Shown: positions 28,397-31,768 of the stretch, in pieces
How positions within the stretch are numbered: the first letter of the stretch is position 1
Layout of the letters: the number at the start of each line of letters is the position of its first letter
NCBI GenBank assembly: GCA_030149205.1
Contig: JASBSB010000005.1
Coordinates: forward strand, 1 to 64,000
Direction: 5' to 3'
Source: Candidatus Heimdallarchaeota archaeon
GTDB taxonomy: Archaea > Asgardarchaeota > Heimdallarchaeia > Heimdallarchaeales > Kariarchaeaceae
Length of the DNA: 64,000 bases
Position numbers and translations under genes: made by a program
Notes under the pieces: generated by a model
What the model saw: only the letters and a program-made list of their open reading frames with translations
Told to the model about the DNA's origin: nothing
Database searches by the model: none

Positions 28397-29182
28397 ATGA
28401 AGATTGTTGTACTTCTAAAAGCAGTGCCAGACACAGAAACGAGATTCAAAATTCGTGAGGATGAGACTGACGTAGTATATGATGATTCTATAGAATGGAT
28501 TGCATCCCCATACGATGAATATGGGTTGGAAGCAGGCATTCAGTTCAAGGAGAAACTAGATGGCACTGAACTGACCATATTGACTCTGGGCAAAGGTAAT
28601 GAGAGTCAAGTGATTAGAAAAGCATTGGCAATGGGAGCTGACAAGGCTTCCTTGATAAACAACGAGGATCTTGCTAGCAGCGACCCACTGGGAGTTGCAA
28701 AGGTACTAGCAAAGGAGCTTGAAGAGCTGAAACCAGATCTGATAATAGCAGGTAGGTTAGCCACTGATTCATCAGATAGCTTTGTAGGACCAGCACTCGC
28801 TGAAATAATGAAATACAGTTTGGTTTCAGAAGTATCAACTATCGAAAATTTTGATGAATCTCATCTTGTTGTACTGAGGGACGCGACAGGCAGAAAAGAG
28901 AAGTTTGAAGTCAAGCTCCCCGCATTAATTACCACAGATAAGGGTTTAAACGAGCCTAGATATCCCAAACTTCCAGATATTATGAAAGCAAAAAGAAAAC
29001 CACTTGATGAGAAAGACTTAGCTGAGTTGAGTGCAATTTCAGGAGTTGCAAATCGCAAAGTAAAACAAGTAAAGGTAGCATTTCCACCGAAGAAACAGGG
29101 TGGAGAGATATTTACTGGAGACCTCGATGAAGCTGTTGATAAACTTGTAAAGGCGTTACATGATAAGGAGAAGGTGTTTTAA
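28397..29182 (+). CDS. etfB: Electron transfer flavoprotein beta subunit
   Basis: KIVVLLKAVPDTETRFKI, DEYGLEAGIQFKE, LGKGNESQVIRKALAMGADKA, AGRLATDSSDSFVGPALAE. Confidence 0.95.
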   Translation: MKIVVLLKAVPDTETRFKIREDETDVVYDDSIEWIASPYDEYGLEAGIQFKEKLDGTELTILTLGKGNESQVIRKALAMGADKASLINNEDLASSDPLGVAKVLAKELEELKPDLIIAGRLATDSSDSFVGPALAEIMKYSLVSEVSTIENFDESHLVVLRDATGRKEKFEVKLPALITTDKGLNEPRYPKLPDIMKAKRKPLDEKDLAELSAISGVANRKVKQVKVAFPPKKQGGEIFTGDLDEAVDKLVKALHDKEKVF

Positions 29183-30129
29183 TGAAAATCGTCATATTTT
29201 TAGAAAGTTATAACGGAAAGCTGGTCAAGGCAGCCAAAGAAGCAATTTCAGTTGCAGATAAAATTGATTCAGGTGCTGAGAAGATAGGGGTACTTTTGGG
29301 TACTGATTTAGATTCTATAGCAAATGATCTTAAGAATTATGGTCTGAAGGAAGTTTACAAAGGTGAGGGTGGTGAATATGCAACTTATCATTCCAGTATC
29401 TATGCCAAAGCCATTAAATCAGTAGATGCTGATTATTATGTAATTCCTGGAACTGTCTGGGGTAGAGAAATCGGTCCAAGATTAACTGTCATGCTAGATT
29501 CATCATTTGCTGGAGATGTCACCGAAGTATTAGACAGTACCAAATTTGTAAGATCAATACACGGAAACAAAGTTCTTTCAACCGTAGAGGTTTCTGGTCA
29601 AACTGTTGTAACAGTCAGACCTGGAGTCTTTGACTTACCATCAGAAACACCCTCTGAATATGAGCTAAAAACACTTGAAGGACATAAGGAAGACCATGAT
29701 GAAAATGTTTCACTTGTTGAAGTTTTAGCCGCTGAGAGTGGTAAAATTGAGCTTACTGAGGCAGACATCATAGTCTCTGGGGGTAGAGGTGTTAAAGGCC
29801 CCGAAAACTTTCATTTGATTGAAGAATTAGCTGGTCTGTTAGGTGCCGCAGTGGGTGCATCTCGAGCTGTTGTTGATGCAGGGTGGAGACCACACTCAGA
29901 GCAAGTTGGTCAAACTGGTAAGTTTGTCAGTCCAAAACTTTACATGGCTGTGGGAATCTCAGGTGCAATTCAACATTTAGCAGGAATGTCAACCTCTGAT
30001 ATTATTGTAGCAATTAACAAAGACGAAGAGGCACCTATTTTCAAGGTTTCAGATTATGGCATTGTAGGTGACCTCTTTGTGGTAGTTCCTAAACTTATGG
30101 AAAAAATAAAGGAAGTCAAAAATCAATAA
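29182..30129 (+). CDS. etfA: Electron transfer flavoprotein alpha subunit
   Basis: C-terminal FAD domain IVSGGRGVKGPENFHLIEELAGLLGAAVGASRAVVDAGWRPHSEQVGQTGKFVSPKLYMAVGISGAIQHLAGM; overlaps etfB by 1 bp. Confidence 0.96.
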   Translation: MKIVIFLESYNGKLVKAAKEAISVADKIDSGAEKIGVLLGTDLDSIANDLKNYGLKEVYKGEGGEYATYHSSIYAKAIKSVDADYYVIPGTVWGREIGPRLTVMLDSSFAGDVTEVLDSTKFVRSIHGNKVLSTVEVSGQTVVTVRPGVFDLPSETPSEYELKTLEGHKEDHDENVSLVEVLAAESGKIELTEADIIVSGGRGVKGPENFHLIEELAGLLGAAVGASRAVVDAGWRPHSEQVGQTGKFVSPKLYMAVGISGAIQHLAGMSTSDIIVAINKDEEAPIFKVSDYGIVGDLFVVVPKLMEKIKEVKNQ

Positions 30130-30173: not shown

Positions 30174-30182
30174 TATATAAAA
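30174..30182 (+). promoter_or_regulatory. TATA box of the tRNA gene (TATATAAAA)
   Basis: Centred about 30 bp upstream of the mature 5' end at 30208. Confidence 0.5.
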
Positions 30183-30207: not shown

Positions 30208-30326
30208 GAGGTAGTAGCTCAGCTTGGAAGAGCGCTGCCCTTCTAAAAATGTGGTTAAACCTCATTTGTAGCAAGGCAGATGTCGCGGGTTCGAAATCCA
30301 ATAAGACGAAATTCCCGTCTACCTCG
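30208..30326 (+). tRNA. tRNA-Arg(UCU) interrupted by two introns: 30246-30273 (37/38) and 30296-30312 (59/60)
   Basis: Acceptor GAGGTAG/CTACCTC, D stem GCTC/GAGC, anticodon stem CTGCC/GGCAG with spliced loop CTTCTAA, T stem GCGGG/CCCGT with spliced loop TTCGAAT; both introns fit BHB folds. Confidence 0.9.
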
Positions 30327-30361: not shown

Positions 30362-31588
30362 TCACCAAAGAGTTTTGACATTTACTGATGGTGCATCTTG
30401 ATCCCAAGATGAACTAGTATTTCCAACCTCTTCACCCAAATCCAAAGCATATGGAGAATCCACCCCAGATAATATAACTGTTACTTCAAGCTTGTTCCCT
30501 AAACTTTCGTCCTTGTCAGTTCCCCAAATAATTTCAGCACCCCTACCAATTTCTTGAGTAATCATTCTAACACTTCTCTTAATCTCATCCAAGCTTAGTG
30601 ATTCTCCTCCTGTTATCTGAATCAAAGCAGCCTTAGCATCCGAGATTTGAATATCCAAAAGGTTTGAAGCAAGTGCCTCTGCTATGGCTTCTTCCACTCG
30701 ATGTTCTCCTTCTCCTTCTCCTACTCCAATTACAGAACTACCACCCCTGGTAAGAATTTGTCTGATGTCTGCGAAATCTACATTCACATAAGCTTTGCTT
30801 TTGATTAGGTTAACAATTCCTCTAACAGCTTTGATTAAGATCTCGTCAGCGACCTTAAATGCCAAATCTAAGGGGAGGTCTGAACTTAATTGTAATAATT
30901 TCTCATTTGGAATTACTATAACTGTATCACATGATTTGTATAGCTCTCTTAACCCTTCCAATGCATTTTTGATCTTGTACTCTCCTTCCATCTCAAATGG
31001 TAATGTACAAACTCCAACAACCAAGGCACCTTGTTCTTTTGCTACACTTGCTATAACTGGAGCAGCACCAGTTCCTGTTCCACCTCCCATTCCTGCTTGC
31101 ACGAAAACTAGATCTGCACCAGACACCAATTCTTCAATCTCTGGGATTGATTCCTCTGCAGCTGCTCTGCCTATCACGGGGTCATTTCCTGCTCCAAGCC
31201 CCTCAGTTAGGTTTTTTCCAAGTATCAATTTCTTGTTACTATTGGTACTGTAGAGATGAAAAGCGTCAGTGTTCGCTGCAACTGACACCGCCCCCTTCAA
31301 GCCCTTTAGGTGCAATCTGTTAACAGCATTTGAACCTGCTCCACCCACCCCAAACACCAGTATCTTGTTTAGATTGTTGGTAATCAAGACTTTTATAATA
31401 TTGTCAACCTGGTCAGAGTTGTATTTGCTCTTTTTATCATTCAGCGGAATTTCATTAGATGATTTCTCTTGATGTTTCCTCTTTATACTGGAAATAAAGG
31501 ATGGTTCTTTGATTTTGGGTTCTTGTGACTGATAAACAGTCTCCAACTCATCCCACATATCAAGATGATCTTTAATGGGAGAACTCAT
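30362..31588 (-). CDS. ftsZ: Cell division protein FtsZ
   Basis: Tubulin signature GGGTGTGAAPVIA, GVGGAGSNAVNRL, NTD; likely start at MSSPIKDHLDMW. Confidence 0.96.
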   Translation of the reverse strand: MSSPIKDHLDMWDELETVYQSQEPKIKEPSFISSIKRKHQEKSSNEIPLNDKKSKYNSDQVDNIIKVLITNNLNKILVFGVGGAGSNAVNRLHLKGLKGAVSVAANTDAFHLYSTNSNKKLILGKNLTEGLGAGNDPVIGRAAAEESIPEIEELVSGADLVFVQAGMGGGTGTGAAPVIASVAKEQGALVVGVCTLPFEMEGEYKIKNALEGLRELYKSCDTVIVIPNEKLLQLSSDLPLDLAFKVADEILIKAVRGIVNLIKSKAYVNVDFADIRQILTRGGSSVIGVGEGEGEHRVEEAIAEALASNLLDIQISDAKAALIQITGGESLSLDEIKRSVRMITQEIGRGAEIIWGTDKDESLGNKLEVTVILSGVDSPYALDLGEEVGNTSSSWDQDAPSVNVKTLW

Positions 31589-31768
31589 AGAAAAAAATCT
31601 AGTACTTAGAATTAATAAAGAAGTCAATATAGATGTGTTATGTCAGTAGTATCGAACCAAGGAGTATACTGAATTATTACAAATAAAAAGTATATTTTAG
31701 TAAGCTAATGGAATAGGGAGAAGCCTTTAATCAATATATTAAAATATGTTACTTACAGTATATCTACA

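What the first reader, a model, noticed from the sequence alone, without database searches (positions are those of the whole stretch)
30290..30313. 17-nt mini-intron inside the T-loop (position 59/60)
T-stem GCGGG/CCCGT is interrupted by TTCG-AAA-TC-caataa-GA-CGAA-ATT: a strict 4-bp central helix (TTCG/CGAA) flanked by two 3-nt bulges. Cutting between bulge nucleotides 2 and 3 restores exactly TTCGAAT. The TTC box itself forms the central helix, so the conserved T-loop sequence doubles as the splicing signal. Non-canonical 59/60 introns are known from some Thermoproteota; one this short with only a 2-bp inner helix looks minimal.
Basis: partly seen in the sequence, partly recalled or inferred. 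Interest (0 to 1): 0.75.

Follow-up and report, generated by a model that had tools for sequence, protein, structure and literature searches.

The report
Tiny T-loop introns in Asgard tRNAs
A single-copy arginine tRNA gene of an Asgard archaeon has a 17-base intron inside its T-loop, and at least 22 other tRNA genes of the same genome are interrupted at exactly the same place, so this cell cannot make a full tRNA set without cutting and rejoining the T-loop; the intron type is known, but its abundance and its shrinkage in this one species have not been described in the papers I could search.

Summary
Window 30208-30326 is a single-copy tRNA-Arg(UCU) gene with a 28-nt anticodon intron and a 17-nt insert in the T-loop. 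The insert has the bulge-helix-bulge layout described, and removing it restores TTCGAAT. It is not a lone oddity. The genome belongs to an Asgard archaeon (Heimdallarchaeia, a congener of isolate S012_26), not to Thermoproteota. At least 23 of about 44 tRNA genes there carry an intron at the same T-loop site. A tRNA finder recognises 0 of 22 of these genes unspliced and 22 of 22, with the expected identities, after in-silico splicing. Position 57 covaries perfectly with the intron (15 A-U, 7 G-C). The same design is spread over Asgard genomes (467 pattern hits in 232 genomes against 25 for a control pattern). In relatives the introns are about 30 nt long and often share a YUGNGG hairpin loop; in this species they shrank to a median of 20 nt and lost that loop. 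The genome encodes both subunits of an alpha/beta splicing endonuclease, with the loop lysine linked to broad specificity, and RtcB ligase. Known intron type; new are the scale, the uniform position and the parallel shrinkage. "Minimal" is overstated. No RNA evidence could be examined.

The parts
30208..30326 (+). tRNA-Arg(UCU) gene, single copy, 119 nt as encoded, 74 nt mature
   Evidence: 7/7 acceptor stem, 5/5 T-stem; ARAGORN tRNA-Arg(tct) after splicing; only one match in the genome
30246..30273 (+). 28-nt intron in the anticodon loop (37/38); ends set by the 7-nt-loop rule
   Evidence: its bulge-helix-bulge was not analysed in detail
30285..30289 (+). T-stem 5' strand GCGGG
30290..30295 (+). 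T-loop 5' exon part TTCGAA (positions 54-59); TTCG forms half of the central helix
30296..30312 (+). 17-nt T-loop intron ATCCAATAAGACGAAAT (position 59/60): last nt of the 5' bulge, TC/GA inner helix with a 6-nt loop, CGAA half of the central helix, two nt of the 3' bulge
30313..30318 (+). T60 and T-stem 3' strand CCCGT
30174..30180 (+). TATATAA, possible TATA box 28-34 nt upstream of the tRNA
   Evidence: read from the sequence, not tested

Best explanation
The insert is a protein-spliced (bulge-helix-bulge type) tRNA intron at position 59/60. In the precursor the T-loop cannot fold: U54-U55-C56-R57 pair with the intron's Y-G-A-A, stacked on the T-stem, which puts a 3-nt bulge on each side. 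The cell's two-subunit (alpha/beta) splicing endonuclease cuts both bulges, RtcB joins the ends, and the mature 7-nt T-loop appears only after excision. Shown here: the sequence anatomy, the covariation, restoration of 22 tRNAs of expected identity, and the enzyme genes. Inferred: actual cutting and joining, the heterotetramer, and the order relative to the anticodon intron. It belongs to a T-loop intron family found across Asgard archaea that spread to about half of the tRNA genes in this species and there shrank from about 30 to about 20 nt.
For: 23 genes with the same design in the genome. 0/22 recognised before and 22/22 after splicing. R57 covaries with the intron: 15 A-U and 7 G-C here, 63 A-U, 33 G-C and 2 G-U in 98 other Asgard matches. 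Helix covariation. Phylum survey 467 against 25 control hits. EndA alpha with invariant Y130, H138, K169 and K49, the last aligned with A. pernix CSL K44, plus a beta subunit. RtcB. Intron-free Arg(UCU) orthologues with a 7-nt T-loop. A 31-nt intron at the same site in congener G001 (L308).
Against: No RNA data were available. The 2-bp inner helix is not in the MFE fold, so the 5' cut site may sit in a 13-nt loop (a relaxed motif). The heterotetramer is inferred from subunit genes, not shown.
Confidence: 0.93

Rival explanations
1. The insert stays in the mature tRNA as an enlarged, structured T-loop.
For: TTCG/CGAA extends the T-stem into one stable hairpin in the fold, and the insert is short.
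Against: The T-loop that makes the D-loop contact would be missing from 23 tRNAs, including what appear to be the only Trp, Asn and Asp genes found. Insert length and inner sequence vary freely between tRNAs, while the pairing needed for cutting is kept. Orthologues without the insert have an ordinary 7-nt T-loop.
Confidence: 0.03
2. The gene is a degenerating pseudogene or an assembly artefact.
For: Standard tools do not recognise the gene.
Against: All stems are intact. It is the only Arg(UCU) gene found. 22 other tRNA genes show the same insert design, with covariation. Independent assemblies of other Asgard genomes show it too.
Confidence: 0.01
3. It is an intron, but removed from a relaxed motif (helix-bulge plus a 13-nt terminal loop) rather than a true bulge-helix-bulge, so its removal depends on the broad-specificity loop of EndA. 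This is a variant of the best explanation, not exclusive of it.
For: The MFE fold lacks the inner helix. EndA alpha carries the specificity loop with its lysine. Congener G001 tolerates U-G or mismatched central helices.
Against: In the aligned family the two inner pairs are always paired and covary, which argues that the inner helix matters.
Confidence: 0.35

Closest known systems
Non-canonical 59/60 archaeal tRNA introns and the 59/60 junctions of permuted tRNAs in Thermofilum pendens (PMC4090602, PMC3218864)
   Same: Same position in the T-loop and same BHB logic.
   Different: Those are scattered examples among many positions. Here one position carries introns in about half of the tRNA genes of an Asgard genome, mostly 17-21 nt long.
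tRNA intron expansion in Thermoproteales with transposition of similar introns between tRNA genes (reviewed in PMC4033280, PMC4090602)
   Same: Many tRNA genes interrupted, often twice; near-identical introns in different tRNAs of congener G001.
   Different: Different phylum. The window's own introns no longer resemble each other beyond chance. Parallel shrinkage at orthologous genes is seen here.
Intron-rich tRNAs of Asgard Atabeyarchaeia and Freyarchaeia (PMC11291895)
   Same: Asgard; most tRNA genes with introns, many non-canonical or multiple.
   Different: Other lineages. That main text gives no T-loop position, length class or hairpin motif in the passages read; its supplementary table could not be opened here.
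(alpha-beta)2 EndA of Aeropyrum pernix with the Crenarchaea-specific loop (PDB 3p1z, 3ajv; PMC6379350)
   Same: Best PDB match of the window species' alpha subunit; the loop aligns without a gap and its lysine is invariant.
   Different: Asgard host, so the loop is not confined to crenarchaea; assembly and activity untested.

Membership tests
Archaeal bulge-helix-bulge tRNA intron | 4-bp central helix between 5' exon and intron | tested here: met
   TTCG/CGAA; 22 of 23 genes in the genome have 4/4 pairs; covariation
Archaeal bulge-helix-bulge tRNA intron | 3-nt bulges on both sides of the central helix | tested here: met
   AAA and ATT; the 5' bulge depends on a weak 2-bp inner helix that is absent from the MFE fold
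Archaeal bulge-helix-bulge tRNA intron | Excision restores a normal tRNA | tested here: met
   22/22 recognised with the expected anticodon after removal, 0/22 before
Archaeal bulge-helix-bulge tRNA intron | Genome encodes EndA and an RtcB ligase | tested here: met
Archaeal bulge-helix-bulge tRNA intron | Transcript is cut in both bulges and ligated | not testable with these tools
   no RNA data or enzyme assay
Non-canonical intron at position 59/60 | Junction between nt 59 and 60 of the T-loop | tested here: met
   TTCGAA|T60 leaves a 7-nt T-loop; orthologues without intron have the same loop length
(alpha-beta)2 EndA with broad specificity | Separate catalytic and structural subunits; specificity loop with lysine on alpha | tested here: met
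   Two PF01974 genes; invariant Y130, H138, K169 and K49 in the alpha alignment; K49 aligns with A. pernix K44. Oligomeric state not tested
Transposed tRNA introns as in Thermoproteales | Near-identical introns in non-cognate tRNA genes | tested here: inconclusive
   Met in congener G001 (Gly CCC/Arg TCG 0.91; Asp/Leu TAA 0.82; shuffle maximum 0.43); not met in the window's genome (best 0.60; shuffle maximum 0.64)

The most novel reading that the evidence does not exclude
Heimdallarchaeal T-loop introns form a spreading intron family that is normally held at 29-31 nt by a hairpin with a YUGNGG loop read by an unidentified partner. In the window's species that constraint was lost, and the introns collapsed in parallel to the bare core the endonuclease needs, leaving about half of the tRNAs dependent on T-loop splicing.
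Probability: 0.3. Interest if true: 0.62.

Novelty: new member of a known kind. Interest (0 to 1): 0.45.

Why it matters
T-loop folding and the D-loop/T-loop elbow come late in this cell for about half of its tRNAs, which bears on when tRNA-modifying and processing enzymes can act. The matched set of about 30-nt and about 17-21-nt introns at the same tRNA genes in two congeners is a natural experiment on what the splicing endonuclease needs and on how tRNA introns spread and shrink. It also shows that standard tRNA finders can miss half of the tRNAs in such genomes.

Tried and rejected
The first survey pattern gave near-control counts in most genomes of the order and was replaced by the stricter GGG...CCC form. 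Model R1 also scores ordinary tRNAs, so its raw counts per genome were not used as intron counts. Five of the 27 pattern hits in the genome lack tRNA context and were rejected. No structure prediction was run: the EndA question was settled by alignment. Copying of introns within the window's own genome was tested and not supported.

Full report
WHAT IS THERE. Window 30208-30326 reads GAGGTAG TA GCTC AGCTTGGAA GAGC G CTGCC CTTCTA[28-nt intron]A GGCAG ATGTC GCGGG TTCGAA[ATCCAATAAGACGAAAT]T CCCGT CTACCTC G. It is a tRNA-Arg(UCU) gene with a 7/7 acceptor stem and a 5/5 T-stem. ARAGORN and Rfam find nothing in the window. With both inserts removed ARAGORN calls tRNA-Arg(tct), 74 nt; with only the T-loop insert removed it does not. 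No second copy was found in the genome.

NOT ALONE. The genome (3.3 Mb, 12 contigs, 93.5% complete) gives 31 tRNA-model matches, several of them truncated at the T-loop. A pattern for T-stem-TTCRA...YGAA-T-stem hits it 27 times against 3 for the reversed control; 22 hits are tRNA genes. A covariance model built from 15 of them adds Pro(GGG), with a 30-nt intron and a 3-bp central helix. With 21 genes that lack a T-loop intron this makes 23 of about 44. Judged by length, about 37 of the 44 have at least one intron, and 12 have two. The 22 are Thr GGT, Glu CTC and TTC, Ser GCT, GGA and CGA, Leu TAG, CAA, CAG and GAG, Gly GCC, TCC and CCC, Gln TTG and CTG, Ala CGC and GGC, Trp, one Met, Asn, Asp and Arg TCT. 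Unspliced, ARAGORN recognises none; spliced in silico by the bulge rule (nt 2|3), all 22 with the expected anticodon.

PAIRING. TTCR pairs with YGAA: here 15 A-U and 7 G-C at the variable pair, with no mixed cases; in 98 matches from other Asgard genomes 63 A-U, 33 G-C and 2 G-U. The pattern itself allows mismatched A-C pairs, so this is a test and not built in. Those 98 were picked by eye from the listed matches, leaving out apparent chance hits and duplicates. Over six pairs in 15 genes, 100% are paired, 21 cells changed on both sides, covariation 0.622 against 0.165 +/- 0.042; slides of +/-1-3 columns fall to 23-58% paired. The window's own 2-bp inner helix is absent from its MFE fold, while the central helix and 3' bulge form. 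So the single case looks relaxed and the family argues for an inner helix.

WHOSE GENOME. The window's genome is of the same genus as G002, hence Asgard, Heimdallarchaeia.

MACHINERY. Every relative searched has at least one PF01974 gene and nearly all have two. In the window's genome one (L121) keeps the conserved Tyr, His and Lys and is closest to the Aeropyrum pernix enzyme 3p1z/3ajv; the other (L122) is divergent at the catalytic motif. The alpha subunit has the loop called CSL in A. pernix, and lysine 49, invariant in seven Heimdall alpha subunits, aligns with its K44, the residue tied to broad specificity (PMC6379350). One RtcB gene is present. Excision by an (alpha-beta)2-type EndA and ligation by RtcB is therefore the inferred route; no RNA evidence was available.

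ORIGIN AND SHRINKAGE. In 232 Asgard genomes the strict pattern gives 467 hits against 25 control hits; 151 of 231 other genomes have at least one, and the window's genome has the most (21; next 14). Median intron length is 20 nt here (17-29 in the 22 pattern hits) and 30 nt in the other Asgard matches, peaking at 29-31 (Mann-Whitney p about 1e-11); the pattern allowed 12-42 nt, so short ones elsewhere were not excluded. In congener G001, 17 tRNA genes have T-loop introns; at all 11 shared isotypes the window species' intron is shorter (Arg(UCU): 31 against 17), Wilcoxon p 0.001. Congener G002 and family member G007 have no T-loop intron in Arg(UCU). So T-loop introns come and go within the genus and were trimmed in this species. 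G001's central helices are often imperfect (8 of 17 have one U-G pair, 3 more are weaker), while 22 of 23 here are perfect. In G001 introns of different tRNAs are nearly identical (Gly CCC/Arg TCG; Asp/Leu TAA), beyond any shuffle, which points to copying between tRNA genes; T-stems are also alike, so conversion of a whole T-arm is possible.

AN UNEXPLAINED MOTIF. Among 46 T-loop introns of other Heimdallarchaeales, 23 contain YUGNGG (shuffle mean 1.9, maximum 8), mostly 9-11 nt from the 5' and 14-16 nt from the 3' splice site, as the loop of the central hairpin; 0 of 23 in the window's genome do. The motif was noticed in these same data, so the shuffle figure is descriptive and not an independent test.

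COMPARISON WITH WHAT IS KNOWN. Position 59/60 is listed for archaeal introns, and archaeal intron lengths of 11-129 nt are reported (PMC4090602). Permuted tRNAs join at 59/60 in Thermofilum (PMC3218864). Asgard Atabeyarchaeia and Freyarchaeia have introns in 92-95% of tRNA genes, often non-canonical (PMC11291895). The single intron is thus a new member of a known kind. What I did not find in the searchable literature is the T-loop as the main intron site in an Asgard genome, the length class with its hexaloop, and its loss here. Subscription papers and supplements could not be read.

VERDICT. Real; correctly read; ordinary in kind; unusual in number, uniformity and evolutionary trimming.

Noticed in passing
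T-loop introns of G001, G002, G007, G010, G016, G020, G028 (e.g. L240, L244, L304, L308, L320): A YUGNGG hairpin loop at a near-fixed place in about 30-nt T-loop introns of Heimdallarchaeales, absent from the window's genome; function unknown.
   Followed up: partly
L320 and L321 (G001): tRNA-Gly(CCC) and tRNA-Arg(UCG) of a congener carry nearly identical 30-nt T-loop introns, suggesting copying between tRNA genes.
   Followed up: partly
L251-L260 (several genomes of family f2): tRNA-Phe(GAA) genes share a conserved T-loop intron with the hairpin TTCAGATGCGTTCTGAA, apparently inherited within the family.
   Followed up: no
L296 (G000:C2:480666-480783): tRNA-Pro(GGG) of the window's genome keeps a 30-nt T-loop intron with only three Watson-Crick pairs in the central helix; it looks like the older long form.
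   Followed up: partly
L024 (G000:C7:215856-215982): A tRNA, probably Tyr(GTA), has an unusually long (about 50 nt) insert in the anticodon loop, possibly two introns.
   Followed up: no
window 29182-30129 and 30362-31627: The tRNA sits between an electron-transfer-flavoprotein alpha-like gene (+ strand) and an FtsZ-like gene (- strand); gene names are from reading the translations only.
   Followed up: no
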